Part shown: in pieces, positions 10,336-37,365 of the stretch
Layout of the letters: every line of letters begins with the position of its first letter
Numbering within the stretch: the stretch's first letter is position 1
Assembly: GCA_010093515.1 (NCBI GenBank)
Contig: MU001708.1
Location: forward strand, 62,001 to 126,000
Source: Lineolata rhizophorae
Taxonomy: Eukaryota > Ascomycota > Dothideomycetes > Lineolatales > Lineolataceae
Length of the DNA: 64,000 nt
Reading direction: 5' to 3'
The notes under the pieces: model-generated
The model's database searches: none
The model's input: the letters and a program-made list of their open reading frames with translations, nothing else
What the model was told of the DNA's origin: nothing
Program-made: the position numbers and the translations under genes

Positions 10336-13300
10336 AGCGCCGGCGGCGTCCACGACGCCGGAACCGACAGCCTTTCCGTTCCTTCCCTTCTTCCTCCTCC
10401 CCCTCCTCCTCCTTCCCGCTCGGTGTGCGCTCCGCGACCCCTTCTCTCCCGCACCGCCCGAAGCAGCTGGCGATACCGCGGTACTCCCAGCCCGTCACCC
10501 ACGCCGTCCTCTCCTCTGCCCGTCCTCGCTCTCGACACGGAAGGCACGAAGGCCAGCCAATCCAACGAGGCGCCACGGCCCTCCGCAAACCGGGTTCCGG
10601 GGGCAGCCGCGACGCGCGTGAATCCGTTCGCCCAGCGCGCCCACACGCGCGCGCGCACACGACACAAAAATCTCGGTTCCTGCTATCCGGTGCTTGGACA
10701 GCCAGGGCCGCCGGATGCCATTGAGCGGCGCTCGAGTCGCGAGCAGTCCATGCGGGCCAGCCAGCCCAGCCCGCCCTCCAACCCACGCTCAGTTCCGGGT
10801 CCTCCCAGCCGGCGTTTCTTGCACTCGCGAGCGCACACGCTCGCCCGCCCGCCCGCCCGCCGCGGGCGAGCCTCTCGCGATTTTGGGCTTCAGGAAGCCC
10901 GGCCCCTTTCCCTTAGTCCGGCTTCCCCGCGGCGGGGAGTCGCAAAGCGGACTTGGTGTTGCGTGCGCCGGAGGGCCCGGGCGGAACGGTCTCGTCGCGC
11001 GAACCGCGGGACCGGCTCGAACTTGGTTTTTTTTTTGGCCCCGACCGCCCGGAACGAGCCCCGGCGGAGAAGAGTTGGCGGGGGAGCCGGGCGGAGAGAA
11101 GTCGAAGAGGCGGCCGGCGCGCGGTCGTCCCGTGCGGTGGTGCGTACGGAGCTTGCGGCGCAGGCGCGCCGGTTGCTGGGCCCTGGGGGGAAAGCAGTGC
11201 GGATAAGCTGGTCGGGGCAAGCCAGAGCCGGGCCCTCACCCGCCTCTTCTTTTTTTTATCTTTTGTTTTTTTTTTTTCCAGGGAAATGCGAGAGTGGCCC
11301 GTTGGCAAGGTGCTGCTGCTGCTGCTGCTCCCGGAGGGATTCCCTGCTTCGATGGCGGCCGCGGGAAGCACGCGGCTGAGTAAGTCTTGGCGCGAGACTG
11401 GGCGCAGCGCTTGTACGTAGGCGAGCGAAGGGAAGGGCGTGCAATCGAGAAGCGCGGAGGGTCGGGAGCGAGTTGGCGGGCTGGTCGTGCGTTGGGGTGG
11501 TTGCGATGGTTTTGGGGCCGGTGGTGACGGGCCGGGCACGAAGCGGGAACACGGGACGGAATGGCAAACGGGCAGGAGGTTCTTTCGCGTGTGTTGTAGC
11601 GGTGGCTATGGATTCTGGCCCCCGTTTCGGCGGTTGGAAGTTGCTCGGGGGCGCAAAATAAAAAATACAGGAAATGGGGACCTCGAGCAACGGAGGGAGA
11701 AGGACAGGGCGCCGGCGGCAGGTCACTGCTGCCAAGTGCGCGGTGAGCGCAACTGCGGTGCATGCTATGCCCGGGGCCTGGCTTCAAGCCCTCGCCCTGC
11801 CCTGCGCGGTGAGCGAAGGCCTGGCGCGGGCGCTAGGGAGGCGAAGAGGGGTGCGTGGGACCCCTCTCCGTGCCCCGAAAAGGGCCGCGCGCGGGCGGGC
11901 TGCCGTCCCCGGCGGGGGGGAAGGGGGGATAGGGCGTGCGCGCGCCCGCGCCGGCGACGTTCTAGATCGCGCCCGCCCCGGGCCCTCGGCGCCCTCGGCG
12001 GCCAGGCCCCCCGGGGCTAGACGCCGCCTGCGCTTTCGTCTGAACTCATTGTGCGCCTCACGGTGAGCACTGCGGACACGGACCCGGCCGGACACGAGAC
12101 GCGGGCTGCCGCTGCGACCTTTTGCTTGCTGCGCGGACGCTACCGGACGGAGTTCCTGTGCAGTACATGGTATAGGCCCCGGCTGGTCCCTTATGTACGT
12201 TTATTCCCGGCCCGCTGAGGGTACTTTGTATGTAGGCAACGCCCCGAGAGGCACAGCATGCCCAGAAGCCCTACGATTCCTACGCGTGTGCCGTCCTTTC
12301 TCGAACCCAGCGCGCAAAATTAGGGGGCGCAAGCCATTGCCCGCCGCCCCAGCCCAGCCCTCGCCCTCCACCGCCCCCCCCCCCGATCTCTTTCCAAAGA
12401 CGTCGGTGGCTTGAACGCCAGCCGAACGCCCGCAGGGCCACCACAGCCAATCTCCCCCGAGAGCCGGCGCCTCTCCGGCCCAGGGTCCTTCGATCCCTTA
12501 GTATAGTAGGTATAGGCTTCGCGCCAGGCTGCGCCAGCACTTCTGGAACGGAATCGGGGCCCCGTCGCCGCCGACTCCCGTCCCCTGTGCGCCCCCCCCG
12601 CCCCCGGCTGCCGGGCGCGTGTGCGCCCGCCGGAGCGACTTCCTGTCTATCCCACCCGCACACAACTCTCCGTCTCCCCCCCCCCACCCTACATATTCGA
12701 GGGCTCTCGCGGCCCAGGGCGGCCCGGACCCACCTGGCTTGCCCGCTTGGCACGGCACAGAGCGCTCTTGCATGCGTACATACCGCCCTGCGCCTGTTTA
12801 TCTGCGGCTTTTTGCTTCCCAATGTTTTTGTGCTCGGGGAGCGAAATGGGGGCGTCTGTTCCCTGGCGACGATCGGGCCTGGGATGGCGGACGGCGGGCC
12901 CCGTCGCCGACGTTGCGTACGCGGAGTCACGAGGGGTTTATGGGAGCCCGGGAAGAGCGGAGCATGAAACGGTAGGGATCCGCGCTCTTCCTTTGGCCAT
13001 GTGCTGCTGCGGACGGTTCCTCCGTGCTAGGCACATATGTGCGTGACAGCGTTTGCCCTAGCCGTAGCTTTTGTGGAGCAGCGTCCCAAAGAAGAAAGGG
13101 GAGGAAAAAAAAACAGGCCTTGTAGAGGGCACTTCAGCATTCATGAGAGAAGACACGGAAGGGCACCCGCTCAGCGTCTCGCAATGGCGACGGGAAGTGG
13201 AACCGGCCCCGCTGCTGCTCGGCCGCTGCTATGCCTACATGCCTAGCTACTCCGTATGTAACGCGACGCGACGCTGCCGAGCCCAAGCTTGGACGTACAA

Positions 13301-15600
13301 CGGCAGGCGTGTACGTAGGTAGCACCGTGCGCGCAAACAGACGGGTCTGGATCGCGCGTCCGCTGCCCTTCTCCCTCGGCCCAGCGGCCGGCGCCCAATC
13401 GCGCCGCCGAGCCGCTCATGCGCCATGCCGTCATCGCTGCGGGCGTCGCCGCGTGCGTCGATGCGGGCCAGGGGACCCCCATGCAGTGCAGCAGCCTTTT
13501 GGTGTAGGAAGACGCTGGGCAACCTGCATACGACGTACTACGTAGGTAGGTACATTGGTACCGCTGTATGTGCCTACTACGCTGGAGATATGTGCTCCGT
13601 GCGACGTACTCTGTTCGGAGGAGGTTAGCTAAGCATATTTACCATCTTAAACGCCCTCTGTGGGTCCGAGCTCCTCGAGCGCAGTCCAGCCGCGAGGCGG
13701 GGGGAGCTGCCCGTCCCACGGGGCCGTTTCGTCTACCCATGGGTAGCACGTATCACTCGTTGCTGCTGGCTGGCTGGGCTGCTGGAGCCCGACCTGGCCT
13801 GGGTGCAGCGGGCGGCGTCGATCCGGCCGCCGGGCGGGGCGAAGATCAATCAAATCCACGATTGCCCTTAGCCGGTTGCGGGAGCGCTCGAGAAGGACGC
13901 ACGTGCCGGTTCCACCGCATTGGCGGCCCAGTCCGAAGAAGTTGTAGGGAAAGGGGGAAAAAGGAAAGGGAGAAAGGCTCGAACTCTCCGATATACGCCT
14001 TCGTGGCCCTTCTGCGCGGACCATGCTGATAGAGTTGATCTCCCAGCTGGCTCTGACTTGTGCACATTGGCCCTCTTGCCTCGCCTGTCGATTCTCGAAC
14101 CGTGATTGGCGTCGCTTGCCCCGGCTTGATTCGCCCTTCTAGATCCTCGTAGCCCGGTACCGAGTACATGGTGGAAGAGAAGATCCATCTGAACGCACTA
14201 GAGATTAGGCAAGAGAAAGGAAAATACAAGAGCTCAACTGACCTATGTCCGATCCGGCCGGTTGCTCTGCACACCACTTAACGAGCCCTTCGACGGTCTG
14301 TGTGCCGTGAACAACCTGACCAGCGATCTTAATTTGCACACCGCTTCAGGCTCCCCGGGCTACAGTTCGATTCTCGTTTACATACGTTGACCCAGTGCGT
14401 CGTCGCCAAGGGCCCGTTCTAGTGGAACCTTTGTAGGTGGGTCATCCGCCGGGTGCAGAGTACTTACCGCCTTGGCCTTTGGATATTGGTAAGCAGGCAG
14501 GATCTCCTACCTACCTACCAACTACCCAAGGTAAGTAACCAACAAGTTTGCATTTGCAAGACTTCAAGTGCTGCCGATTTACCTGCTCCCGAGCTACTCT
14601 CGTGGGTGGAGGCTTTGCGTGGTTAGCAATCAGCGCAGGGATCCTACGATCCAGGTGGGCTAGTTTTGCGGATGTGAACGCGGATGCGGATGCGGATGCG
14701 GATGCGGATACGGGTGCAAGTGCAGAACCGCGGATAAGGATGCCGATGGAAATCCCCGCGAATCAAAACTGCCCATTGTGCGCGAGCTTCCCATGAAAAA
14801 TGTGCAAGTCCGCAAATCCGCATTTCGCAATATTCGACGTGGTTCGGACTTGTTGCTTCCTTGACTTGAGCGAAACTAAGGCTCCGAGGTCCACCCTCCG
14901 CCGAATCCAAGCACTCCCACGTGCCTCTCATTATAAATGCAGCAGCCAGCCAGCCATGTGCCGGCCCAGCCCCGAGTCTGAGGTGGGCCCATGAACCGCC
15001 GGGAATTAAGCATGGCCTCGTGGCAGGCGCTAGCTGGGCACAGTGCTTGGTTCGTACCTAGCACAGCGTTGCATGGGAAAGTAGGCGAGACTGTGGGACA
15101 AAGCAGAGGCTAGGCAGGTGCTTCTTTCGTTCTCCGTTTAGTCGCTAGTCGTTCTAGATGCCTTATCGACTGACTATAGGTTCTAACCACAGGTCCTAGT
15201 GGGAACGGGTGGGAGCGGCTATCGTACTATGCACTTGCTATTGCCACAGTCTAGACTTTCACTAGTGGATCGTGATCTGACCACAATGGGCCCACAATGA
15301 TGCGAGATTATGTCGAGACGAACTACGATATATTGGCCTTGGGCACGGCCTTTCTTTTCTGAAACCATTGATTTTGTGTGGAACGATGGATAAAGGTGCT
15401 GAAGGATAGTTTTGCTGTGATGCGATAGTGGTAGTACGTACCAGTTCTTACCAGTAAAGTGAATACCTAGTCACTAGTTTTCTCCAATCACTAGACTGTA
15501 TTGAGCCCCTAAACGTCCAGTTAAAAGTTAAAACAAAAAAAATCACTCTTTTAGAAATAAGGACCCCAAGCAAAAGTTCAATCCAATATAAATAATTTGC
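10336..15600. other. Gene-free GC-rich interval
   Basis: About 5.3 kb with no supportable gene. Open frames on both strands are GC-biased, Arg/Pro/Ala-rich and overlap one another, as expected from chance in high-GC DNA. The part next to 10335 should contain the promoter and leader of the histidine kinase gene. It holds G/C homopolymer runs (for example near 12370 and 12590), one TACTCCGTA at 13248-13256, tracts built from CCTAC/GTAGG words (13540-13555, 14505-14520), and a short GGATGC tandem repeat at 14682-14711. No tRNA- or 5S-like sequence was found by eye. Confidence 0.5.
14682..14711. repeat. GGATGC hexanucleotide tandem repeat
   Basis: Four exact GGATGC units followed by one GGATAC variant, in intergenic DNA. 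It is a simple microsatellite. Confidence 0.85.
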
Positions 15601-15626
15601 AAATTAAAGCAATATTCAAGCCAAGC

Positions 15627-16492
15627 TCATGGGGTGAAAATTGCCACTCCGTCATTCTCGTCCACTAAGCTTGGACACGCCCAGAAAAAAGAAGGATCAC
15701 GTCCATCATAACAACATCGTAACGAGCCGCACCTCAATCCTTCTACCGCAAACCCCTGACCAGCCTCATCTCCTCTCTCCACCTCCCTCCCCGCCGTACA
15801 TTCGATTTTGATTCCCAACCCAGCCAAACCCTCCACCAGCCACGACAGCCCAAACATGACACCCCCCGGATCAGTCGCCCTAGACGACCTCTCCCCTACA
15901 ACGTACACAGCAAGGCCCTGCGACTACGCTGCACAGTTTCGAACAGACCCAAAGTTCCGTCCGAGTAGAACGGCAGGAGGAGAGCGTACTTATCGAGCCC
16001 GCGAGCCAAACGCGGCTCCACGCATTCGCGGGACGTCGCTTCGGTTGGCACACGCGACGTCGATCCGGAACGGCTGCGCCTCCGGCGGGAAGCAGAGCGC
16101 ATCGCAGAGCAACTGGGTGATTGATAAAAAGGCCTTTTTTTTTCTTGGACCGTGTTCTTTCGACTTTGGTCGAGTTGCCCCAGGGCCAGGATAACGTCGC
16201 ATTCTCGAGGTCAATGCCGTCGGAAGACGTATGGGGGAGTTCGTAGCGCGGTTCGAAGGCCTCGCTGTCGTCGGGAGTGACTAGGGAGGGCTGGTACTTT
16301 AGAGGCTGTTTTTGTGCTGCGTGTGGTTGCGTGGGAGATGGCGATAGGCGGACTCTATGGATCTTGGACACCGTTGCGAAGGATGGGACTGGAGGAGGGG
16401 TAGATGGAGTCCATGGCTTCACGGTCCGATTGAGAAGAGTGGATGCTGTTGTCCTAATCGGCGAAGGTCTATTGATTGAAGGAGTAGTTTAG
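15627..16492 (-). pseudogene. Unassigned minus-strand coding-like region, possibly a broken gene
   Basis: A minus-strand frame is open from about 16492 down past 16165. It has Pro/Ser-rich sequence with RYELPHTSSDGIDLEN and ending NATLSWPWGNSTK, but no ATG is in frame; the first candidate start is GTG at 16422. A weak GTCGAA donor at 16164 and a CCAG acceptor at 16113 would join it to LLCDALCFPPEAQPF down to a stop at 15990. Further coding-like peptide (LDKYALLLPFYSDGTLGLF, then SWLVEGLAGLGIKIECTAG) lies downstream in two other frames to 15627. This could be a real gene with introns I cannot place, or a decayed one. I do not recognise the product. It lies directly upstream of the DUF3435 relic and points away from it. 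Confidence 0.3.
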
Positions 16493-16536
16493 CAGGCATA
16501 TCACCGTGAAAGCGTGGCTATGCCACAGCGGAAGTC

Positions 16537-18130
16537 ATGGCGCTCGGATCAGTTGGTAAGCTCGATGAGGAAGATGAACTGCAAACTCCCGACAGCGTGC
16601 GACGCAAAATACGCCGATTCTGTAACGCGTGGGAACGTCAGCATGATCTATCAATACCCCTGGAAGTCAAGCGCTCGATGGTACCGGCAAGTATGACCTC
16701 CTACCAGCGTGCGGCCTTTTTTTCATGACGCTTATCAGTCACAAGCGTATTGAAAAGGAACTCGCGGAGAAGCTCGGTCTGAAAGATCTATATTGAGAGC
16801 AAACATACCTGACCATAGAGAACCATGTCAAGCTGCATGAGCTCCTGTGGTTCGATGACTATCATGGCTACGTGCACAACAGGTACCGCGTGGACGACGC
16901 CAACCTTGTAAATTCTCATTGTTTTACTTTCGCTCGCCTTAAGGAGCTATATCAGGCCAAGCACCGGGTGAGTGCCAATAATGGCACTGTTAAATGTGAC
17001 CATTTCGCTGACTTTGAGGCAGGATCTCGTCTTGCTAGTGGGGTGGAAATATGGAGAGCCGGAGCTGAAGCTGAAAATCAAGAGGAGAGAATGCAAAAGG
17101 AAGCACAAGAAACAGTAAGTCGCAGGCAACTGGCCGCCCTTGGCAACGCAGCTGACCACCGTTTAGGCCGGAACACATCATACCCGAGAAGATGTCGCCA
17201 AAGCTTGGACCTCCGCCCCTGTACTCACAGCCAACATTGCTCTGGCTCGCCACTTTCATCTCGTCCAAGGCGATCAAAGGCAATCCCACCCTTGAGGAAG
17301 TCCTTGGGCTCGTTCCGCCACCAGGTCGGAAACACGGGGTGATCCCATGGGAAGAGGATATGCTAGACAAGCCGGTCTTCCCGAGTTAGGCCTCAGAGGG
17401 GCCAAAACCGGAGGCCCGAAGTCCAAGCAGTTTGGGCCATCAAAGACCAGACACCGCTAAGCGTGCCGGGTTCTGCGACGGCATGGGCTTTCACGCTCTC
17501 CGCCCTGGGGTCCTCGTCAAAGTTGTTGGTAGGATTGTCTGCTCTAGCGAGCGAGTACATGCCGTAGCCTGCTAACATAAAGACCAGATGACGGCTACTG
17601 CATCGAGTAGGTGTTGAAGTACGCCGACCAGCAGAACTCTTCAGTTCTCCGCAGACATTACCTAGGTGCAATGAACACAGTCGACGGGGTGGGGAGCTAC
17701 CTAGGTATGGATAGCAGGAGCGACCTCACTGAGGACTTCCTGTCGGCGACAATGAGATGAAATATGGACCTGCCTCTCGGACTCCCGACCAAGGAGCGGG
17801 CCGCGCTGGAGCTACAAGAGGAATATGTTGCATCCAAGCGAGAAACCGAGGAGCTCACACTGCAGATTGAAGATGTCAGCACCGCAGAGGAGGCGCGGGA
17901 ACAGTACAAGGCCTTTCGACGTCAAGCATGCGCTGAGCGACGAGGGCTAGAGAAGAATAAAATGCGAGAGTGCCAGTAGAACCAGCCGCTTGAATATCCG
18001 ACCGAACGGGAACGCCGTGAACAGAGCGACTGGCGACGAACTCGCCTACCTCGTATCTTGCATATGATGCCAGAACGCCGACCTCTGTTTCATACCTTAG
18101 CTATGCCTCCCTCAAAACACCTGTAAATAA
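16537..18130 (+). mobile_element. Decayed DUF3435 tyrosine-recombinase gene (Starship captain / FluG-type superfamily)
   Basis: DUF3435 proteins are fungal tyrosine recombinases. Members of the superfamily are the captains that move giant Starship elements; others sit in short or orphan elements. Read in order on the plus strand, pieces match the family: DSVRRKIRRFCNAWERQHDL near 16600-16660, LTIENHVKLHELLWFDDYH near 16810-16870, the YRVDDANLVNSHCFTFARLK block, WKYGEPELKLKIKRRECKRK near 17043-17100, PPPLYSQPTLLWLATFISSK, PPPGRKHGVIPWEEDMLDKP near 17315-17370, and the C-terminal RRHYLGAMNTVDGVGSYLGM that carries the expected nucleophile Tyr. The SLPTKE-like segment and the MMPERRPLFH segment near 18065 follow. 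The pieces fall in different frames with several breaks, so no working protein is expected, although intron signals explain part of this. Base composition is lower in GC than the flanking core genes. Family recognition is from memory of conserved blocks. Confidence 0.65.
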
Positions 18131-18639
18131 GGAAACGGTCGAGGCTCCGCACTCCGCCTTAAAGACGACTGACGTCCATCAGCTCGGATGAGGAGGCTTT
18201 TCCCAAGCACAAGAGGGAGAACTAGTTGCTGGGTGGTCATAGAGTCGTCCAGTAGAGAATTTCGTCTTCTCTTCCCAACTTTTACGATCCTCCATTTTAA
18301 GCTGATCGTTGTCTCTATTCGTCTCTGTGCTTTACCTAGACCTAGTAAGCTGACTACCGGAGGCGGAACAACAACACTTGTCATTATGGACCTCTTGAAG
18401 CAGTTCCAGGATCGATTAGTATGAACCTCTTTTGAGAGAACAGCGGAGAGAAGTGCATACCGACGATAAAACAGCAGGGACTGGTGGTCGAAATTAGTAC
18501 CGGAATCCCCTTCACAACACTCTGGCAAAGCCCGAAAGACCCGTTAGATATTCGTATCTTGATCTAGACGGAGGCCGAAACTTATCCGACAGCAAATTCA
18601 AGTCTCCGGCAGCTGCTTCAACAACCTGCTGAACGAGAA

Positions 18640-18905
18640 CTTTACGGTAGCCTTACCGAGCTCTCAGAGCTGTGTCAAGACCTCAGTGTCGATGACAGAT
18701 ATGTCATTTACTCTGTCATGTACTACCAATACGGCCAAGAGCTCGACGGACCATGTGAACACTGCAAAGAAAAGGGTGGGGCTCCTTTCGAGAAGTGCGT
18801 GGTCTCGCATGGCCAATTCAGCAATGCTTGCGCCAACTGCATTTTGACACGATGTCATAGATCGTCTCGTGGATCATCTCTTGAAAATCCGATTGTGTTG
18901 TAAGG
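18640..18905 (+). pseudogene. DUF3716-like cysteine-motif fragment
   Basis: A plus-strand stretch reads DDRYVIYSVMYYQYGQELD, then GPCEHCKEKGGAPFEKCVVS, then GQFSNACANCILTRCH. The pattern C-x2-C, GPFxxC, then CANC resembles the small cysteine-rich module of fungal DUF3716 proteins. The frame is open over about 80 codons from about 18658 to the TAA at 18901-18903, but no convincing start is seen, and the sequence between it and the DUF3435 relic is broken. It may be a remnant of a separate small gene or a tail of the same element. Confidence 0.4.
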
Positions 18906-21179
18906 TAAATAATGTTGCATATTGGTCTCAGCTGTCATGCATGCTGTTGTCAGGGCGAGTTGATTTGAAGTGCCACGGTCGAGTGGGCAAGGGCTGTCTT
19001 CTTTGTCAGGTCTTGCTCTCGTTCTGCGGTCGTTTACCGTCGCTTCTGCTTTCTTAGAGAGATCGTATATCCGTTACGTTTAGCCCCTTGAGCAACACGG
19101 AGACAAGCTTTAAACAGTGAGCTGCGACAAGTCCACCTGCCGCGACGTTCCAGCATGGCATGTTGAGGGCCTGTCACCCGAATTTAGCAAGGATCAAAAA
19201 TGGTGCCATCTCCAGTTCGGCAAAGCCGACTAGTAGAAACGTCTCGCATGAGCAAAAGGAGGGACAAATTTGAGGCTCCTTCGTGCTCAGACGTCCAACA
19301 TAACATCACGTGCTACTACATGATAACCTTATCACGTGGGACTTTACACAGCTAACATGCCTGCACTAGCACAGCATTTGCCTGGTTCAAAGCAGCCAGG
19401 TATCTGGTGCTATCTGTAGGCGTCTCGGGTCTAGATCAACGCTGAACAGGTATTCCAAATAGGAGTTCAGCGATAGGCAAGTTAGCTTCGCTTCTAGATA
19501 CAAGACGTAGCGCGAAGAAGAGGAAAGGAGAGGAAGGAAGCGGACACAGCTTCTGCCAGTTCAGGGGTAAGCTTGATTATGTCAGGTTCACTTGTGCATA
19601 TGATCACGTGAATCACTCACGGTGTCCTCTTGAAGTGCCAGTACGCGGGGCTAGTGCTTGCTCTTAAGCACTAGGGGTTTAAACGGGGTGCGTCGTCAGA
19701 AGTATCGTGGCTCTGCTCTAGTCTTTAGGAAGTGATGAGTGCCTGAACGGTTGTTTAACAGTCGTCGTGCAAGCGACTTCGTAGGAAGCCACACGGGCGA
19801 AGCAACACGTCGTCTGGCGCTTCCTGTCGCTAGATGATTATTTTAGGCCAGTCCTCACTCAACAATTCTCGTACGAGAAGTGTCTTCGTACGCTAGCTAT
19901 CCGCTTACAGAGCACGTCGTCTGAAGCCCTCGATCGTTTGAGCATAGGTAAGCGCTCGCGCAAAGGACTCTGAGAGAGGAAAACTGCTTCCTGCTGCATG
20001 CTGTATGAGCGTCTAATTAGATACACGGGTTAACATGAGCCCTCTCCTCCTCGAACATCCTCGAAAACAAAGCTCGAACGAGAACTCCTGAGACAAACCC
20101 GCACTCATCCGAAGCTCTACGTCGTCTGGAGCTGCAGATGGTCAGAGGCCACAGGGCGAATGGTAGCGCGGTGCTCATGTGCCGATAGGCCTTTAGAAAC
20201 AGTACAAGCGGTGAGAAATATGAGCGTGCTTGTACTAACAGAAAGTACATTAAGGCCAACAATAACTGTGGATGATATATAAGATGTTACATAATATGTA
20301 TATTTGTTTGCATTTAGCACGCTATTTCTTTCACCACTTGCGGCGATTCTAAGCTAAAGTGCCGAGATCTGCGATATTCAGTCCTATCCCTTTCCCTGTT
20401 GGTAGCGGTGTTAGCCTATATGTAGTCCCTAGCCAGCAGAATCGTACTGAAATGCGATACTGTGCCAGTGTTTTGACCAAGTTGGCTAGTTGCAGGCTAG
20501 GGCATGCTAGTTCTAACACTCTATAAGTTTCTACTTTATAAAGGCGACTATTTTTAAGAATTCTATACTATATAGAGATTATAGGGTAAAATGAAATCTA
20601 ATTAGTAGATTAAATTTATAGAGTATACCTACTTGCGAGATACTAAGCTTTTCTAGATATGGTTTAAGAGTAAGCTAATATTACGGGCCGTAGATTAGCG
20701 CCGGGGTTGGCAAAAACAGTTAAAGAGAATGAAAATCGACGCACCCTTCAGGCCGCCCTGTCTAGACTTGTGATTGGCAAGATATGCTTACTAAGGAGCG
20801 ACATGGCTGCTCACAAAAATTCCTTGTCCGGATTTTGTGAGAAATGCACATTCCAGTTCTCCTGACGTAAATCCCTGTCGCGCACGACAATATACTGCAG
20901 CGAGTGTGCAAGCACTGCAAATGCAAGTGCAAGTGCACGACCGAGCCTTTTCAACAGGTAGATTTATCCCTGAGGGAACAGAGTTGTATGGCCCGTCAAG
21001 TTTTGCCAACTCGGTGAGAGGAAAGCTACTTATCAGCTTAACTCTTCCAGCCGTAAATTCCTTCCAGTCACAATGGTCTGCCCTACCCTTCATCAGCGCC
21101 TTTGGGCATCATCGCAGTGCACCGCCTTTGTCGCTATCATTGACTCGCCGCCCCTCACCTCTTCCGATAGTTTCATATC
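18906..21179. other. Gene-poor relic DNA with an AT-rich patch
   Basis: No supportable gene. 20510-20700 is strongly AT-rich (rich in TATA, TTTA and TAGAT words), in contrast to the GC-rich core. This is compatible with old repeat DNA mutated by repeat-induced point mutation (RIP), but I have not measured RIP indices. 20840-21179 is more balanced and should include the promoter and leader of the HNH gene. Confidence 0.5.
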
Positions 21180-22467
21180 ATGTTGTACAGCTCAATGGCC
21201 AATCCTTCGCCTCATCACCGCCATCAGGCGTCCCTCAAGGGCGTCATCGACTTTTCCACCGAACCGCCGCTGGGAGCAAATGAGCGTGTCGAGGCCAGGC
21301 GCAGATTTTACCACATAGTCAACCATTTTGAGGATACAGAGAAGAGGAACAGCAGCGGCAGCAGCGGCAACGAGCCGTATAATCGACCGGTCTTCGTCCG
21401 CCTCACTTATGAGTACGCCCTCTCCGAGGAATCGCAAGATCACTATCTGCGGGCCTTCTTCCGTTTCATGGCGCTCTCGGTGACTGGAGAAGACGTGGAT
21501 TTCGGCGATAAGAACCTCAAAGATGAGATTCGCTCGACCTTGCTTAGCTTCGCAGATTATCTCCTAGACAGCTTCTTCCTGCCTTGTCTGTATCCCAATC
21601 TCTTCAACTCCCCAACCTCTGCTGATGTCTTCTTCTAGTGAGAGCTTCTACGAAAAAGACTCCCCAACCATCTCCCGCGCACCGTTCCGCCGTCGAAAGG
21701 GGAGCACAACAGTTTTTTGGGACGCCGGAACGAGTATCAGCCCTTCATGGCACCTGTCTTGTCCGTGACCGTCACCGCTGTGTAATATCTCGCCGCTTTG
21801 ATCAAAAGGAAGCTGTAAAGCGTTGGGAAAAAGATGGCAAAAACTACAAAGACGACGACGGGAATTCCCTTGTTTCAGAAGGGTTCAATAAGCTAGAAGT
21901 TGCCCATATCCTCCCGCGTTCTCTGACAAAGATTGAATCGGGCTCTGAATTAGTTTGTCCCTAAAATTCGAAACAAAGGTGTTTCTCCTGGCTGATTCAT
22001 CTACACAGAGTGCTTCGAAACAAGCCGCACTCGCCATTCTTAACATGTTTGACAGCGGCATTGGGCACCTTATTGAGGGCGCCAACATCGACCAGCCACA
22101 TAACGCCCTCACTCTTACAGCTGATCTTCACGAGCTCTTTGGCGACTTCCGCATATATTTCACCTCGACGGAACAAGAGCACAGCTACCGGATTGACTCT
22201 TTTCTGCCGCCGGCTCTCTTGCCAATTCATCTCCCAGTTACTCGTACGCTGTACCTCACGCCTAATAGGACGATTGATCCCCCTTTACCGCGGCTCCTTG
22301 CCATCCATCGTGCTATTGCTCACATCCTTCACCTCTCCGCGGCAGGCCAGTACATCGATAGAATACTGCGAGATGTCGAGGAGACGGGCGTACGGGCAGA
22401 CGGATCTACTGACTTGAGTCGTATCCTAAGGCTCGGACTGGGTGGGTGGTTACGTGTCGCTATTTGA
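21180..22467 (+). CDS. HNH_2-type nuclease-domain protein
   Basis: Fungal HNH_2 (PF13391-like) protein. The family has a beta-beta-alpha metal nuclease fold, but its role in fungi is mostly unknown. My model is 21180-21585, 21639-21952 and 22009-22467, with introns of 53 and 56 bp in matching phase, giving 392 aa. The N-terminal half, with SFADYLLDSFFLP near the first splice, is helical and of unknown function. The HNH core follows: CLVRDRHRCVISRRFD supplies the leading strand, LEVAHILPRS (His near 224) the first H, and HNALTLTADLHELFGDF (Asn272, His281) the N and second H. All three signature positions are present and no frame break is needed, in contrast to the neighbouring relics. The first in-frame ATG was chosen; MANPSP six codons later is an alternative. 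Its position between a recombinase relic and a DNA transposon suggests accessory DNA. Confidence 0.75.
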
Positions 22468-22901
22468 TGCCTAGCATTCGAAGCGTGTCGAAAGGGCCAG
22501 GAGGCCGAGATACGGATCGATAGTGCCTGTGCACATTCTGCTCTGTTGCAATACTAGTGGGGACGAGCAGGATGGAGACGACGTACTTCTCTAGCTGGAA
22601 ATGGTAGGCGGTAACAGGCGAGAGGCAGAATTTGAGTGGTGGAAGTGCTACCCCTCACTGCATTCCATAGAGTGAGAAGTACTAAGTACCCCTCGCAGGA
22701 GCCAGACAAAAGATGAGCACAATTCTGCAAGCGGACATGGCGTCACAGCCTTTGTTGGTGTCGTGAATATCAATGTATGGCAGCAGTAGACACGTGACGC
22801 CCGGGGCCAAGTAATGCCGGCCCTGGTTCAGCACACAGCAAGTGCCAAGCCATTAGTTTAACACTCACCAAATTTCCTACCAAAATCTAGGAATTTAGCT
22901 A
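22468..22901. other. Intergenic region between HNH gene and transposon
   Basis: About 430 bp holding the HNH gene 3' region and the left flank of the transposon. The TA dinucleotide at 22900-22901 is the left copy of the transposon target-site duplication. I see nothing else in it. Confidence 0.6.
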
Positions 22902-22946
22902 ACCGTTCCCATCAGGGTATGACCCACCCTCAGGGTATGACCCACT
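22902..22946 (+). repeat. Left 45-bp terminal inverted repeat of pogo-type element
   Basis: Begins ACCGTTCCCATCAGGG and is the exact reverse complement of 24708-24752. It contains two copies of CAGGGTATGACCCA with an 18-bp period (22913-22926 and 22931-22944), which could be tandem transposase binding sites. That function is inferred. Confidence 0.95.
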
Positions 22947-22990
22947 CAACACCATGATCCTATCCCAATTCATCATAGAACCTTCAATTC

Positions 22991-24656
22991 TTACTCAATT
23001 TGAATGATCTCAGGCTCATTTTGAAGCTGATCATCTGGAGAATCCTGCTGGCATGCCCTGGCGTTGTGTCCTAAGGTACCACATTTGCCACATCGTCTTT
23101 TCTTCTTGGCACCGGGGGCCTCCATGAGGACATCTTCGACCAATTCGGTCTGCCATTGCGCATATAGCTCCTCATCGTCGATCATTTCTTGCCCTTGAGC
23201 TACAGATAGTGGTCCTTCAGCCTTCAGTAGCTTTCTCTTGCGCTTCTTCCGTCCAGAAAGCTCTTCATTTAGCGCTCGAAGCTCGGCGTTCTCCTGCTGC
23301 AAGAGCACCGCCGCCTTGACCGTCTTCTCCCAGCCCTTCTTCATATAAGCCAAGGCATCCACGATTGGTGTTGGAGAGCTATCTTGGTGTTTTCGGATGC
23401 TCTTTTCGATGAGCTCGGTCTGACAGTCGAATCCGACGTAATTCGAAGGCGTTTGGGAGTGCCAAGCAGCGTGTTCGAATGGCGGAGGCGTCGGAGTTCG
23501 GAGGTGGATGTTCAACTGGGACAACACCATAGCAGGGTCCCATGGTACGAGACCTGTCTTTTCGAATGCTGATCTGACATTGCTAGCTCTGAATGCCTTG
23601 GGAAAGGCCTCGGAGAAGGCCTTGAGGAATGCTGGCTTGTCAACGTGGACCTGTCCGAGACGCATTCGGCTGTTGAGAGCATCTCCGTAGTACGCCTTTA
23701 ATGGCCCGAAGCACCCAACATCCAATCGCTGAGTGATATGAGAGGAATGCGGAGGTAAATAGAAGCAGAGGATCTTGTTGTCTTTCGCGTATTGGTCGAA
23801 TTTGGCGGAAATATGGCTCTCATGACTGTCCAATATGAGCAACCGCCATGCNNNNNNNNNNNNNNNNNNNNNNNNNNNNNNNNNNNNNNNNNNNNNNNNN
23901 NNNNNNNNNNNNNNNNNNNNNNNNNNNNNNNNNNNNNNNNNNNNNNNNNNNNNNNNNNNNNNNNNNNNNNNNNNNNNNNNNNNNNNNNNNNNNNNNNNNN
24001 NNNNNNNNNNNNNNNNNNNNNNNNNNNNNNNNNNNNNNNNNNNNNNNNNNNNNNNNNNNNNNNNNNNNNNNNNNNNNNNNNNNNNNNNNNNNNNNNNNNN
24101 NNNNNNNNNNNNNNNNNNNNNNNNNNNNNNNNNNNNNNNNNNNNNNNNNNNNNNNNNNNNNNNNNNNNNNNNNNNNNNNNNNNNNNNNNNNNNNNNNNNN
24201 NNNNNNNNNNNNNNNNNNNNNNNNNNNNNNNNNNNNNNNNNNNNNNNNNNNNNNNNNNNNNNNNNNNNNNNNNNNNNNNNNNNNNNNNNNNNNNNNNNNN
24301 NNNNNNNNNNNNNNNNNNNNNNNNNNNNNNNNNNNNNNNNNNNNNNNNNNNNNNNNNNNNNNNNNNNNNNNNNNNNNNNNNNNNNNNNNNNNNNNNNNNN
24401 NNNNNNNNNNTCCAAACCCACGCGCGTCCATATCGAGGATACGCTTAATAAGAACCTCTCTTTCCACTTGGCTGAGCTTCTGAAGGCTCATGTCGCATTC
24501 TTCTGCTGATTTGGTCTTGCCGTCGCGTCGACGCGCCAGAGTCCGATGGTTGACGTTGAAGGCTTTTGCAGCGGCCCTGACACTGTCAAAATGGCCTTTT
24601 TTGAGAGAATCGATAGCAAGGAGGATATCTGCTTCATTTGAAAGGTGTCGAGGCAT
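22991..24656 (-). CDS. Fot1/pogo-type transposase (interrupted by an assembly gap)
   Basis: DDE transposase acting on the element's own inverted repeats. The N-terminus (ATG at 24656) carries a Psq/CENP-B-like helix-turn-helix, with LSNEADILLAIDSLKKG and AAAKAFNVNHRTLARRRDGK, and breaks off at DARGFG by the gap. After the gap the DDE domain resumes at WRLLILDSHESHISAKF (second catalytic Asp), then FYLPPHSSHITQRLDVGCFG (third acidic position) and SNVRSAFEKTGLVPWDP. The C-terminus has a Leu-rich segment (VLLQQENAELRALNEEL), a Lys/Arg cluster and a CCHC zinc knuckle (CGKCGTLGHNARAC). The first catalytic Asp lies in the N run. The two visible parts are in different frames only because the 559-base gap is not its true length, so this is not evidence of a frameshift. 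Confidence 0.9.
23852..24410. other. Assembly gap (559 N)
   Basis: A run of N inside the transposase gene. Reads from other near-identical copies would make such a region hard to assemble. The sequence here is unknown and the gap length need not be exact. Confidence 0.99.
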
Positions 24657-24707
24657 TTTGGGTGGAGAAATTGAGGTTTGAAGTTGGTGGACGCGTCAAG
24701 ACGCGGG

Positions 24708-24752
24708 AGTGGGTCATACCCTGAGGGTGGGTCATACCCTGATGGGAACGGT
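24708..24752 (-). repeat. Right 45-bp terminal inverted repeat of pogo-type element
   Basis: Exact inverted copy of 22902-22946, ending GGGAACGGT next to target-site TA at 24753-24754. It holds the same duplicated 14-bp word in inverted orientation. Confidence 0.95.
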
Positions 24753-24754
24753 TA

Positions 24755-26050
24755 CGCACTTTAATACTAAATAAAATTAATAAAATTACAAAAAAAATTA
24801 TAATAGCAGTATTTAAAAGATAAACTAAGATTCTCCTTATTTATTTAAGACAGATATAAAGCCCCTAGCCACGGTCTGAATAGCATACCTCTACAGTACT
24901 CGAGGGCTGCGAGTTGCAAAAGGAACGAGGAGGACAAAATGCAACAGGTTTTCTTCCCCAGAGGGTTTCGCCTGTAGATCGAACAGACAGAAGCACCCCA
25001 TAAGCATCAGCTTGCAAGGGCGTATGAGATAATAATAATATAATGTATATGAATTTTGGACCATTATACGAAGATACGTTGCTAAAATTTAAGGTGTCAA
25101 GAAACTAATGTCCTAGTATGGTAGATCGCAGAGTGCAGGTTCACCTACACTCTGCAATCTCAAACCTCAACCTCGTATACACTCTGTTTGCCACCGTATA
25201 CCCTGTGGAGCTCGACAAGTCTTACCACTACGAAGCATGCGTAACTTCGATGTCATGCATCAATTGGGCATTGCACCTTCGGAGTTCGTACTACGCAACA
25301 CGCGACTCGACACAATTGTTAATAATATGCCTTATTACGTCCCTAATTACCGCCACCGCACTTCGAACTCCCGATGCCACCTTGAATGCATCACTTCGGT
25401 TAGTGACGCGAGCCTCCTCCGTAGCTACTTACATGAAGTGGAATCAAAAGTGCAAAGACAAGAAAAGCACAGTATGAGAAACAAACAAGCACACAAAACA
25501 CCCAAAGAGAATGCTGCAGCATGCATCCCGCAGACGCCTCCTCCAGTCCAGATGAAAAGGGAGGTGCAAGAATCAGAAAAGCCAGGAACCAACTTAGTCA
25601 TCCCCTTCCCCAACTCGAATAAAAACAAACAAGTTCTTTTTACAGTAATCGATCAGCCCGATAAAAAAAAGTTCCCGCAAAAAAAGAAAAAGAGAAACCT
25701 AACGTCCAAAGTGGTGGTAGTGCAAAAGCCCGTTCCTTGCGTATGGGTTGTGTGCATGTACCCGCTTGTGCATGCGTCGTGCAACGAAACTAGCCCACTC
25801 AGCCCCAACCACAGTCTTCCCTTCCCTTCTTCCTCCCACCTTCACAACGCCCGCTTCGAACCCGGCTCCCTCTCTATGAAGTACAAGCCCGTCGAGGCCT
25901 CAACTTCGGTCCTAAGCTCCGCCAGCTCGATCTCTTCGACATTCCTGCTCAAACATCCGCAACATAAGCAATATCAAGTCTGTAACAAAGTACTCGCACT
26001 TCCTCTCCTTGCACTGAGGCCAGCGCCCCGTCCCCCACATCACATCGAGC
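24755..26050. other. AT-rich right flank of transposon and 3' region of the Csi2-like gene
   Basis: 24755-24850 is very AT-rich (runs of AATAAA/ATTA words), resembling RIP-mutated DNA. A near-perfect hairpin lies at 25124-25159. From about 25600 to 26050 the sequence is pyrimidine- and A-rich and probably the 3' untranslated region of the minus-strand gene that ends at 26051. Open frames here have no recognisable product. Confidence 0.5.
25124..25159. repeat. Short near-perfect hairpin
   Basis: The arms pair GATCGCAGAGTG with CACTCTGCAATC (one mismatch), then AGGT with ACCT around a two-base loop. About 35 bases in total. Its function is unknown; it may be a relic of a small inverted-repeat element. 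Confidence 0.6.
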
Positions 26051-29894: not shown

Positions 29895-32375
29895 ATGGCC
29901 GAAAGAGCCCATAAAGCGTCTCACCGCAGCTCGTTTCTTTCGCGGGCGGTACATCTCCTCTAAGGCTGATCTACACTTATACCACTGCTGACCATTTTCT
30001 CTCAGTGCGAGAACTGCCGTCTAAGAAAGGTTAGCACCTGCACAGGCGTTTAAACTTAACTGAGCATCCCTTCTATACTTGCACTACCAGGACCATGCCA
30101 CCATGAATAGAAATAATGGCATATTCTAAGAAAGCTGTCGTGTGAGTCAAGCTGACTTCGTTCTAGATCCGATGTGACAAAGCGATACCCTGCTCGAGTT
30201 GCCAAACGCTCGGTATTACGTGCCAAGCTGCAACAAGGCAGGTTGAGCCTCGCCCCCGAATGGTCGTTTCTGGCCAGTAGTGCGTACCCCGCAGCATGAC
30301 AGCCAGGATCTTCACGCTAATCAGTCTCAGTGAGAAGCAAATAGAGCTTATACAGGAACGGTTACGTACCATAGAGATGAGCGTGAAAGAGATATCGAGG
30401 AGTTCACAACGCTCCCAATCTCCACCCAGAGAGGATTTGCTTGGCCAATCAACAAAAGGGTCGCCACCTGCTTCCATCACGGCCTTTGAGGGAGACTCTT
30501 CTTTTGGAACTTCGACTTTGGAAGCCAGTAAAGCGGCGGACCTAGCGGTGGAGAGAGTTCTCGGTGAAAACCAGGAAGTTGCCGCTGCACTGTCTGCCTT
30601 AAGAGACAGTCTTCAGAGTCATGAAACGGACTCGCGAGTTCATTATGCATATCTTTCCAATCAACAAGGACCATCGAAGCCGTTTCGCGCTGATATACGC
30701 CTGCTTCCTGTTGAGTTTGTCATTGCATTGGTCAAGAAATACAAAGGTAACTGGTCGAGAACCACCCCTTGCAATCGTATTCGAATCAACGCTGATGGTC
30801 TTTCAGTGGCTCCACCACTTTGCCTCGTTACTATGGCAGCTCCTGAACATATCGATGTTGAGAAGCTTTGCCAAAAGATTTACTTTCCGAGCGAACCAAT
30901 ACCTCCAGGATCCGTGACTCTCATGCATGCTTTATTGTACTATATCATGCGTGATTACGCCGAGGAAGACTACTCGGATCTTTCCGAATTTGATTTAGCT
31001 ACGTATAAAGATATCTGCGAGAAGAACCTCTACAAGGGATTGGAGACTTACGAGACTCTTGTGACTCCCACACTAGAGAATATTCAGTCTCTGCTTCTGG
31101 GAGTAAGAATGAATTGTAACAGGTTCGAGATAACGTACTGACAAACTTATCCTAGGCATCCAAAGCGCAAGAAGATTCCAAAATCTCGCTTTGTTGGAGC
31201 TACGTATCGGCAGCCCAAAACATGTGCCAGACCCTTGGCTACCACAGGAAGTCAGCTTTGAGGAACGACACGTTCAAGGTTGCAGAGGCGAAACGAAATG
31301 CTTTTTGGAATTTGTACATGCTTGATAAAAATCTCTCCTTGAATCTCGGTCGCGCGTCTAATTTTCGAGACTACGACATCGACGCTGAGTTTTTCACCCC
31401 TTGTGAAAATCCGCTTCAGCGACCGTGGGATCAGATGGCTCTTGGGTGGGTAAAGTTTGCGACGGTACAAGGCGAAGTCTACGATCAGCTGTACTCCGCT
31501 CAGGCAGCCAGATCGCCACCAGAAGGAAGATTACGGGCTATTCAAGAGCTGTCATCTCGTTTATTGACCGTTCGGGATGAGATCGTCTCGGTATAACGCA
31601 CTTGTAAGCGATGGGAAGCTTATGATCTTATGCTAATGATCGTTAGGTTGACTATTCGCGGGGATATTTCTGCGAGTATGTTTGTTGCATGGACGCTGCT
31701 ACAGACTTCATTACCTACTCTGTCCTTACAATTATATATAGAGCGCAGGCCATTCAAGGACACGGTACCGAGATTAGCGGCAAATGCTTCGAGGCGGCCA
31801 AACTAAGCTTGCAGAATCATCTGAGGTGCTTTGAGGATTTTCGACGTTTAGGAGGCTCAAAGCAAACTGACTATGTGAATTGGTTAGTAGGGCTTCTGCT
31901 ACCAAAACATGTCTTTCTCACAGCTGATTTTTCTTATTGTAGGGTGTTACTCTATCCATCCTTCACGCCTTTTGTTATAGTTTTCACACATGCAATCGGG
32001 ACCACTGATCTCGACGATCTTGCCCTATTGAGCGAAACCGTTCATTCACTCGACATGCTCAAGCATCTATGCCACGGGTCGAAACGGCTCTTCAACGTCT
32101 GCAAGGCGTTCCTCAATGCGGCCGAGGCACTGATTAACTCTCGACAGACGCTAAGTGGGCTCCACCAACACGACAACGGCTCGCTCGTCCTTTCGCCCGG
32201 GACGAACCCGCAAACTCAACAGATGCCCATCTCAGACTTCGTGTGGCCTACCGAGGACTTCAATTTCGGCGCGTCCAACATGGATATGTCGGCTTTTTTG
32301 AGCGGGTGGCTTGGCGCGAACAGGCCGGTGACAGAGATGCTCAATCTCGAGTTTGGCGAACACGACACGAACTAA
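29895..32375 (+). CDS. Zn2Cys6 fungal transcription factor
   Basis: Nuclear zinc-cluster regulator. My eight-exon model gives 669 aa with consistent phases: 29895-29948, 30006-30029, 30167-30276, 30325-30746, 30807-31102, 31156-31590, 31647-31882 and 31943-32375. The zinc cluster is split over the first three exons and reads ACENCRLRK then IRCDKAIPCSSCQTLGITCQ. Cys19, 22, 29, 35, 38 and 45 give the exact C-x2-C-x6-C-x5-C-x2-C-x6-C spacing, which strongly supports these splices. A short coiled coil follows (EKQIELIQERLRTIEMSVKE). The middle holds a fungal-specific regulatory domain: LCQKIYFPSEPIPPGSVTL, WSYVSAAQNMCQTLGYHR, and AKRNAFWNLYMLDKNLSLNL with GRASNFRDYDID. The acceptor at 30324 could instead be 30330. 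The gene sits 548 bp before an ABC transporter on the same strand, suggesting it controls that gene. Base use is less GC-rich than the core genes. Confidence 0.88.
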
Positions 32376-32923
32376 CCGGTGCTCGTACGATTCGCGTATG
32401 GCCGGCTGTCGTTGTAACCGAACGGGTTGTAATGAGGGATTTTTTCTTTGGATGGACGGTCGTAAGGGGCTCGCTGTAGACTAATGAACTGCCACGATTG
32501 TGGCACGCATGCGGCCGCCCTTCTCCCAAGACCTCATCAAAGCCACTTTTTCTTGAACTCGAGATGTAATCTTGCAGACTTGTGACCGTGCGTTGGGTGT
32601 AGGCTGTCAACATCGCGTGGCCCATTCTTTGTTGCCTGGAGGGCCAAGGCCAAGAGTTTTAAGTCTACCGCCCGCGGCGACCTCGGGGTCCGCGGACTCC
32701 GTGGCTGGACTGAATCACCACGCTCTATTTGGCAGCGCTTTCGGGGCTCAAGAACTGCCAGCTAATCGTAGAATAAAATATTATATTCTGCGCAAGTATG
32801 GGGAGTTAGAATTCAAAGTTAAAAACGTTTTGCAGTTTGTTTTATCTCGTTGTCTCGTGCCCTTCTCACAGTTTTACGGAGGTTCCATATTTGCAAGCTG
32901 GGATTCTATTTCACGACATTGCC
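32376..32923. promoter_or_regulatory. Intergenic region, transporter promoter
   Basis: 548 bp between the regulator stop and the transporter ATG, holding the regulator 3' end and the transporter promoter. CGG-type half sites typical of zinc-cluster factors can be picked out by eye (for example GTCCGCGGACTCCG near 32688-32701, a palindromic CCGCGG core), but binding is only a guess. Confidence 0.45.
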
Positions 32924-35900
32924 ATGGAACAAACGGACTGCAATGAGCACCCCACAGAAAAATCTGAAAATAGAGAGAATGATTCCTCTGTTGATTGTGG
33001 TTCTTCTGAGGAAAAGAAACAGCATAAAGGCGCATTGGTTGCATACATGGTAAATCAAACCTTGATCCCACTCTCTATCGTGCGTTCCTAACTTGTCCGA
33101 CGCAGCGGATATTCTCTCATGCAGACGGAACAGACTGGGTACTCCTCACTGTTGCTACGCTTGCAGCCATCGGGTCCGGAGCATCTCTTTCGATGGTGCA
33201 ACTCATTTTCGGCGACTACGTCGATGTCATCAGTGATTTCAGTCTAGGCATCTTGTCGCCATCCGAGTTTCGTGACGTGATCGTTACACACACTTTGCGG
33301 TTCATCTGGGTCTTCATTGCACGGTTCTTCTGTTCTTACATTTTCACCGTGAGATACACTTGCTTCGAATTCCCTGGTGTTGAGTGCACAGTGGTTCTCT
33401 GATTCGGAACTTAGGTCTGCTTAACAATATCGGGCACTCGCATTACACGAACGATTCGCTTCCTCTTCCTTAAAGCAACTTTGTCTCAGGAGATTGCCTT
33501 TTTTGACAGCGGAACGGGTGGTTCCGTGTCGGTGCAAGCTACGAACAACGGGAACCTGATCCAGCAAGGCATTTGTGAGAAGCTCGGTCTGACTCTCCAG
33601 GCCGTGTCTACATGCGTCTCCGCAATTATCATCGCGCTCGTCGCGCAGTGGAAACTCACGCTCATCACAATAACAATCGCTCCCGTCATGGTAGCCGTGA
33701 TTGCTGTCGGAGTGAGCATGGACACCAAAATCGAATCGAGGATACTAAAGATATACTCACAAGCTGCGTCGCTGGCCGAAGGTGTCATATCATCCATTAG
33801 GAACGTTCATGCCTTCTGGATGCGGCCACGTCTTGTCGAGAAATACGATGAGTACCTATGTGAAGCGCATCAGAAGGGAAAGAGGAAATCTCTCGTATAT
33901 GGATGGCTGTTTAGCATAGAGTATTTCTTGATCTTTGCTGGGTTTTCGCTAGCTTTTTGGCGCGGTGTCCACATGTACGCCGAAGGCGAAATCCATGGCC
34001 CTGGAGTGATCGTAACGTAAGTTTTCGAGTTCTGTATGTTCAATTCGCAGTCTTCGCGCCCCCATTTGTGGCTAAAGCCCGGCTTCGCCGCTAATTCATA
34101 TAGTGTCTTATTTTCTATCGTCATCGCCTCCACTTCACTCACCCAGATATCGCCCTACTTTGCTGCCTTTGCCAACGCCGCTTCAGCCGCGAATGAGCTT
34201 TTCCAGACCATGGACCGACCTTCGTTGATAGACCCACTTGACAGCTCTGGCGATAGGCCTGAAAAATCGGACGGTGAGGTCGAACTTTCGCAAATTAATT
34301 TCTCCTACCCAACACGTCCTGAAGTTCAAGTCCTTAGCAACTTCTCGCTTACATGCCCCGCTGGAAAAACAACTGCCCTTGTGGGCGAAAGTGGATGTGG
34401 CAAGTCTACGATCGTTGCGTTGATTGAGCGGTGGTACAATCCGACCTCAGGATCAATTAAATTTGATGGCCGTAACATTGCTAAGCTCAATATTAACTGG
34501 CTCAGAACAAGGGTCCGGCTAGTCCAGCAGGTAAGCTGTTTTGTCTGTTAGGCTGTTATCATTCTTAGGCCCGTGTATTTACTTTAAATCGTGTAGGAGC
34601 CCGTTCTATTCAACAACACAGTTTTTCAGAACGTCTGTTATGGTCTAACAGGGACAATATGGGAAAACGCATCAAGGGATGAACAGATGCATCAGGTTGT
34701 TGAAGCTTGCAAGATCGCCAGCGCTCATGGTTTCATTTCCGATCTTCCCGAAGTAAGTTACGTTGCATGTGCCCGCGAGTATTCTCTGGCTAATTTGGAA
34801 GGGCTATGATACGCACGTTGGTGAGCGGGCTGGACTTCTTTCGGGAGGTCAGAAGCAACGTATCGCTATTGCGCGGGCAGTAGTGTCCAACCCAGATATC
34901 CTGCTCCTCGACGAGGCGACTAGCGCTCTCGACCCGCACTCTGAAGGTCTGGTACAGCGAGCCCTGGATCAGGTTTCAGTAAACCGGACCACGATCATCA
35001 TTGCCCACAAACTTGCCACAGTAAAAAACGCCGACAACATTGTCGTCATGTCCAAGGGGCGCATCATTGAACGTGGGAAGCATGAAGAACTAATCAAGCT
35101 TGACGGTAGTTATGCACGCCTTGTCAAAGCCCAGGATTTGGAGATCAAGGTTGACACAGTTCAACCTGACGGGGAAGATAATAGCACTGAGGAAGACTTG
35201 GGTGCGTCAGCTTTGACGGAAAGGACAACAACTTCAAGCAGTGCTGTGCGGGGACGAGAATTATTGCAGAATCAACAAGCAGAGCTTGACTATGGCAACT
35301 ACAGAGAGAGAGGCATCCTAAGCGTAGTTGTGTCCACATTACGCGAACAACATTCTCTTCGGCCGACGTTCGCTATTATGCTTATCGGTTGCATTGCTGG
35401 AGGTACGTAAAATGTTATGATGCAGTTAATTACTCACTGACCTATATAGGCGCTGGGTACCCGTCCCAAGCAGTCATCTTGGCCGAATTGATGGATGTAT
35501 TTAACTTCACTGGTCAGAAGCTTCTTGACGAGGGAGACTTCTATGCCCTGATGTTCTTCGTCGTTGCAATCGCAATGTATATTATATACTTCACTCTCGG
35601 ATATTGCAGCAATACCGTCAGCCAGGTGTGTTTACTGTATCGATTCTGTTATCAACAAGGAAACATACTAAAACCTATAGACCATGACTCATTTCTACCG
35701 GCGAGAAATGTTCGACACCATTTTGCAGCAAGACATTCAATTTTTCGACCGCGAGGAGAACACGACAGGAGCTCTGACTAGTCGCCTTTCCACTCAACCT
35801 ACTCAGCTACAGGAACTCATGAGCTTGAACCTGGCACTGATCATAGTTATGTGCGTCAACCTGGTAGCTAGCAGCATCCTAGCTATTGCAGTCGGCTGGA

Positions 35901-37365
35901 AACTCGGCCTCGTCGTTGTGTTAGGTGGTCTTCCACCCATAATTTTTGCTGGCTGGCTTCGAATGAAGCTCGAATTCAAGTTCCAAGCCGACACTTCCAA
36001 GAGATTCGCAGACAGCGCCGCACTAGCCGGGGAAGCGGTGGGGGCCATCAGAACTGTTGCGTCCCTTGCGCTGGAGCGGAAGGTTCTTGAGCGCTACCGA
36101 ATGAGAATTGACCATATCGTCCGTATCTCTGTGCCTTCGATCTTATTCTCGATGTTCTTTTTTGCTGCCACCCAATCAATCGAATTTCTGGTCCTTGCCT
36201 TGGGATTTTGGTATGTCATTGGAACCAACGATAATGCGAAAACGAAAATGGGTTTGCTAAATTTTTCTACAGGTACGGTAGTAGATTACTTTCCACTGGG
36301 GAATACAGCTTGAAGCAATTCTATATTGTTTTTGTTGGCGTCTTCCTAAGTGGACAAGCTTCCGCACAGCTATTTCTATTTTCCACTAGTGAGCAGTACT
36401 AACGCCGTGCCTGTCACGGGGACTGAAGTCTAACGAACATTCTCTAGGCATTACAAAGGCTGTCTCTGCGGGCAATTATATTGGCTGGATACGCAGCCTG
36501 AAACCGATCGTTGCAGAAACCGACCAAAACGTCCAAATTGGGCCAAGTCGGTGTGATCCGGATCTCTCACTCTCGCACGTCTCTTTCACCTATCCTACCA
36601 GACCGGATACAAGAGTGCTCCGCAACATTTCTATTGACGTGGGTACTTCCCCTTACTATCTTCCACCACTGGCATGCTAATAATCGATAGATCCATCCGG
36701 GCACTTTCATCGCACTAGTAGGAGGGTCCGGATGTGGCAAGAGCACCGTCATATCCTTGATTGAAAGATTCTACGATCCAACCTCCGGCCGAATTCTCCT
36801 AAGCCATGCAAACATCTCCTCCTTGAACCCGCGTCTCTATCGTCGGCAGCTCGCCCTCGTCCAGCAGGAACCCGTCCTATACCAAGGCACGATCCGGGAG
36901 AACATCGCGCTCGGAATGGAAGACGTCGACAGCCTTTCCGAAGACGCCATTATGCACGCCTGCAGACAAGCCAATATCCACGAGTTCGTTGCATCTCTCC
37001 CGGAAGGACTCAACACTGATTGCGGCTCCCGCGGTCTGTCGCTCTCCGGCGGTCAGCGACAACGCATCGCCATTGCGCGGGCGCTGATCCGCAACCCGAA
37101 GGTGCTGTTGCTCGACGAAGCCACGTCGGCACTAGACACCGAAAGTGAGCGTGCGGTGCAGACGGCGCTATCCGAGGCGGCGGCGCAAAGTATGCGCATT
37201 ACAGTGGCAGTCGCGCATCGTTTATCCACGATCAAGGATGCAGATAGGATTTTGGTGTTGCTGGGCGGTAGAATTGCGGAAGCGGGCACGCATACCGAGT
37301 TGGTGCAAAAGGGCGGACTGTACACTAAAATGTGCCAAGCGCAGTCTTTGGACCTTGCGGCTTAG
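32924..37365 (+). CDS. Full-length ABCB (P-glycoprotein/MDR-type) ABC transporter
   Basis: ATP-driven exporter with layout TMD1-NBD1-TMD2-NBD2, expected in the plasma or an internal membrane; the substrate is unknown. Eleven exons with consistent phase give 1,280 aa: 32924-33049, 33106-33348, 33415-34016, 34104-34530, 34597-34752, 34802-35402, 35450-35625, 35681-36210, 36273-36388, 36448-36638 and 36691-37365. NBD1: Walker [10 protein letters not shown] at about 418, Q-loop LVQQEPVLF, signature LSGGQKQR near 532, Walker [12 protein letters not shown] near 552, H-loop [12 protein letters not shown]2: GGSGCGKST at about 1067, [17 protein letters not shown] near 1175, [20 protein letters not shown]. 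Both ATP sites are canonical. The N-terminus is hydrophilic and acidic. The gene is apparently intact. It follows a zinc-cluster regulator on the same strand. Introns are many and short, unlike the near-intronless core genes. Confidence 0.93.

What the first reader, a model, noticed from the sequence alone, without database searches (positions are those of the whole stretch)
16537..18130. Relic of a DUF3435 (Starship-captain-type) recombinase marks an accessory island
Ordered conserved blocks of the DUF3435 family can be read across 1.6 kb, in several frames. Captains sit at the 5' end of Starship elements with cargo downstream, so the DNA to the right (cysteine-motif fragment, HNH gene, pogo transposon) could be remnants of cargo. 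Seen: the blocks and their order. Known: captain position in Starships. Inferred: any link to the neighbours.
Basis: partly seen in the sequence, partly recalled or inferred. Interest (0 to 1): 0.7.

Follow-up and report, generated by a model that had tools for sequence, protein, structure and literature searches.

The report
Dead DUF3435-type recombinase gene, standing alone
A fungal genome carries the broken remains of an intron-containing gene that looks related to the recombinases that move large fungal transposons, but nothing found around it shows that it ever headed such an element, so it is most likely an ordinary gene fossil.

Summary
The observation largely holds; the island is not supported. 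Window 16510-18126 (+) is a decayed gene whose pieces align in order with a second decayed copy in the same genome (C14:280323-281802; 47% and 34% identity, E 1.4e-26 and 2.0e-18). The "several frames" are best read as four introns, each of which joins the frames exactly when removed; three recur at the same place in the C14 copy, one of them seen only by eye. No frameshift is needed, but five in-frame stops break the gene. Partial kin lie on C18 and C37.

DUF3435 membership is likely but indirect. No relic piece passes Pfam's cut-off (best 13.5 of 25.8 bits); the C14 copy reaches 25.2 bits (E 1e-5). One of eight Pfam-positive loci (C21) outscores all 486 controls on the relic.

No evidence for a Starship was found. 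DUF3716 and HNH relatives elsewhere have no DUF3435 match (E 1e-3) in the flanks held. The pogo element looks like a later arrival. No long repeat brackets the relic. Related strains could not be compared, so an empty site is untested. Solo DUF3435 genes are already described (PMC12134995, passages).

The parts
16510..16686 (+). Exon 1 of the relic (similarity starts at about 16555); no stop inside
   Evidence: 45% identity over 47 aa with L040:4224-4364; frame reading
16687..16745 (+). Intron 1 (GCAAGT...CACAAG), 59 nt; seen by eye, acceptor chosen because it keeps frame
   Evidence: Sequence; frame check; the motif scan did not list it in the relic but lists a GTGAGT donor at the same codon position in the C14 copy (L040:4356-4412)
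16746..16967 (+). Exon 2 of the relic; in-frame stop TGA at 16794
   Evidence: 63% over 19 aa with L040:4528-4584
16968..17022 (+). Intron 2 (GTGAGT...GGCAG, CTGAC branch motif); removal keeps frame
17023..17114 (+). Exon 3 of the relic; no stop inside
   Evidence: 30% over 40 aa with L040:4608-4727, E 0.009
17115..17166 (+). Intron 3 (GTAAGT...TTTAG, CTGAC branch motif); removal keeps frame
17167..17528 (+). Exon 4 of the relic, the best conserved block; in-frame stop TAG at 17387; weak PF11917 match
   Evidence: 47% with C14, E 1.4e-26; 46% over 126 aa; PF11917 13.5 bits, profile 125-203
17529..17587 (+). Intron 4 (GTAGGA...ACCAG, CTAAC branch motif); removal keeps frame; same place as L040:5141-5191
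17588..18126 (+). Exon 5 of the relic, to TAA at 18124; in-frame stops TAG 17608, TGA 17758, TAG 17977
   Evidence: 34% with C14, E 2.0e-18; 35% over 84 aa with C37, E 9e-8 against held loci

Best explanation
The feature is a pseudogene of a DUF3435-type tyrosine recombinase gene. While intact it would have encoded a recombinase that cuts and rejoins DNA through a tyrosine-linked intermediate, as DUF3435 proteins are thought to do (inferred from the family, not shown here). The gene had at least five exons. It lost function, leaving five in-frame stops, and the start of the gene is missing or no longer recognisable. It belongs to a small, old subfamily in this genome with at least three other members, one decayed (C14) and two partial (C18, C37). 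It now stands in gene-poor DNA that has also collected transposon debris, and most likely does nothing. Shown: ordered similarity, the stops, the kin. Supported: the introns. Supported indirectly: DUF3435 membership. Inferred: the ancestral mechanism and present inertness.
For: Ordered similarity to the C14 copy. Four introns that join the observed frames in the relic, with matching introns at two places in the C14 copy by motif scan and at a third by eye in the sequence printed there. Five in-frame stops. C14 copy 25.2 bits, E 9.9e-6 to PF11917 over profile 228-332. The C21 DUF3435 locus (67.0 bits to PF11917) aligns to the relic with 66, above all 300 shuffles (maximum 65) and all 186 other windows (maximum 53), and with a second set of penalties with 79 against maxima of 77 and 70. 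Further kin on C18 (E 3.1e-5) and C37 (E 0.0084; E 9e-8 against held loci).
Against: No relic piece passes the PF11917 cut-off, the C14 copy is 0.6 bits short of it, and the pieces of the C18 and C37 kin have no PF11917 hit. Of eight DUF3435 loci used as queries only C21 beats all controls, and with the laxer penalties one control window (131) exceeds C21's score on the relic (120). In the reverse test with the C14 frame as query two of the eight (C9 and C17, 50 against a null maximum of 49) do so and six, C21 among them, do not. Profiles built from the relic and its kin find no DUF3435 locus significantly (best E 0.085), and profile-profile comparison gives probabilities of 8% and 39% from very thin profiles. 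Catalytic residues were not mapped against a reference.
Confidence: 0.82

Rival explanations
1. The relic is the captain of a decayed Starship. The element began just upstream of 16.5 kb and ran rightward, and the DUF3716 fragment, HNH gene and perhaps more are what is left of its cargo. (A sub-case of the best explanation: it concerns what the dead gene once belonged to.)
For: DUF3435-type gene on the + strand with low-GC, gene-poor DNA to its right. A DUF3716 domain starts about 0.6 kb downstream although only three were found in the genome. Elements whose captains or repeats have been lost are described (PMC12134995, passages).
Against: No direct or inverted repeat of 18 nt or more brackets the relic in 13-42 kb. 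The two other DUF3716 loci (about 5 kb flanks) and the HNH loci (about 1.5 kb flanks) have no match at E 1e-3 to the relic, C14 or the eight DUF3435 loci. The pogo element looks young. No flanking DNA shared with C14 in a capped search. DUF3435 genes are more usually solo (PMC12134995, passages).
Confidence: 0.12
2. The relic is a solo member of the DUF3435 superfamily that never carried cargo, a resident or domesticated gene that was lost. (Also a sub-case of the best explanation.)
For: Multi-intron structure kept in two strongly diverged copies, few copies, and no element ends found.
Against: Four scattered members, decayed or partial as far as seen, fit old mobile genes at least as well; no orthologue could be examined for conserved position or selection.
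Confidence: 0.3
3. The similarity to DUF3435 is chance and the gene belongs to an unrelated multi-exon family.
For: The relic and its C18 and C37 kin fail the PF11917 cut-off; links to the genome's other DUF3435 loci are weak in most tests.
Against: E 9.9e-6 for the C14 copy and the C21 alignment above all 486 controls. The weak PF11917 matches of relic exon 4 (profile 125-203) and of the C14 exon 5 region (profile 228-332) fall in the right order.
Confidence: 0.08

Closest known systems
DUF3435 (Pfam PF11917) tyrosine recombinases, solo copies
   Same: Weak PF11917 matches in the right order (relic exon 4, C14 exon 5 region); scattered, mostly interrupted copies in one genome
   Different: The relic lies below the curated cut-off and forms a divergent subfamily with C14, C18 and C37
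Starship captains
   Same: DUF3435-type gene beside gene-poor, low-GC DNA
   Different: No element ends, direct repeats, empty site or shown cargo; the gene is dead
Degraded or derelict Starships (elements that lost captain and/or repeats; PMC12134995, passages)
   Same: An element whose ends have decayed could leave a picture like this
   Different: Here the captain-type gene is what remains, and no cargo region can be tied to it; no intact relative could be compared

Membership tests
DUF3435 (PF11917) | Profile match above the curated cut-off (25.8 bits) on the feature itself | tested here: not met
   Best relic piece 13.5 bits, E 0.034; six whole-frame readings none
DUF3435 (PF11917) | Match through a close homologue | tested here: inconclusive
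   C14 copy 25.2 bits, E 9.9e-6, 0.6 bits under the cut-off; C18 and C37 pieces none
DUF3435 (PF11917) | Sequence similarity to accepted DUF3435 loci of the same genome | tested here: inconclusive
   One of eight loci (C21) beats all 486 controls on the relic; reverse test two of eight, barely
DUF3435 (PF11917) | Catalytic Arg/Tyr residues of tyrosine recombinases | not tested
   No reference alignment held; candidate residues seen by eye only
Starship | Captain is the first gene at one end of the element | not testable with these tools
   No element boundaries known
Starship | Flanking direct repeats and/or terminal inverted repeats | tested here: inconclusive
   None of 18 nt or more brackets the relic in 13-42 kb; published direct repeats can be 5-6 bp (PMC12257634, passages), too short to tell from chance here
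Starship | Cargo carried with the captain | tested here: inconclusive
   Relatives of the neighbours occur elsewhere without a DUF3435 match at E 1e-3 in the flanks held; this does not exclude cargo here
Starship | Polymorphic insertion with an empty site | not testable with these tools
   No related fungal genomes held

The most novel reading that the evidence does not exclude
DUF3716, a cysteine-motif domain that no paper in the searched library mentions by that name, is a partner gene of this divergent DUF3435-type subfamily, so that the two together are the fossil of a so far undescribed two-gene or Starship-like element.
Probability: 0.05. Interest if true: 0.45.

Novelty: new member of a known kind. 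Interest (0 to 1): 0.15.

Why it matters
Little on its own. It suggests that a low-copy DUF3435-type subfamily can fall below the Pfam cut-off through divergence and decay and so be missed by a standard captain search. It also shows that a gene fossil read in three frames may simply keep its introns.

Tried and rejected
Frameshift decay as the cause of the several frames: set aside in favour of introns. The first frameshift-tolerant alignment used penalties too lax to separate signal from noise and was repeated with stricter ones. RIP as the cause of decay: composition indices over the relic are not raised (composite index -0.47 and -0.37 for the 2-kb windows starting at 16001 and 17001), so not supported. 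The DUF3723 search (a Starship accessory family, from recall) found nothing, but no control genome rang either, so it says nothing. Parts of the C14 locus upstream and downstream of the shared gene give no convincing match in window 13001-22900 (best E 0.24). The PDB search with a C27 stretch was off by one base and so in the wrong frame; uninformative. A Prp6 search meant to place the host gave three PDB sequences that do not narrow it down. No Rfam match in 14000-26000 at E up to 0.5. Structure prediction was not run: its stated rule does not cover loci from the fetch from genomes, and the relic segments alone would be folded almost without an alignment.

Full report
Setting. The window is bases 62001-126000 of contig C39 (172,753 bases) of an unnamed 31-Mb genome in 48 contigs, by its gene content a filamentous fungus (inference). 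The relic lies in lower-GC DNA (0.44-0.56 in 1-kb windows from 14 to 24 kb, leaving out those dominated by masked bases) between GC-rich genes (GC 0.66 at 9.2-10.5 kb and 0.68 at 26.1-27.7 kb). No related fungal genome is held, so the locus could not be compared between strains.

Noticed in passing
window 20409-20518: A 110-bp repeat with terminal inverted TGTTAG/CTAACA that can fold back on itself (MITE-like); 22 further near full-length copies at 87-93% identity and two fragments among the 42 rows; no Rfam match, folding z -2.15 on the + strand.
   Followed up: partly
window 22900-24754: Pogo-like DDE_1 transposon with identical 48-bp terminal inverted repeats; its interior is partly masked (N 23852-24410); its end recurs in 13 rows at 90-96% identity.
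   Followed up: partly
window 30281-37365: ABC transporter (33.4-37.4 kb) with coding stretches of no Pfam assignment upstream, in low-GC DNA (GC3 0.47-0.66 in five stretches, against 0.67-0.93 in seven stretches of other genes of the window); possibly a separate accessory or transferred cluster.
   Followed up: no
window 21180-22467: HNH_2 family gene with relatives at five other loci in the genome at 51-68% identity; an expanded gene family.
   Followed up: partly
G000 contigs C1, C9, C17, C18 (two loci), C21, C27, C31: Eight Pfam-positive DUF3435 loci; seven of the eight have at least one stop in a matched frame (some may be introns read through), so the genome looks like a graveyard of these genes.
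   Followed up: partly
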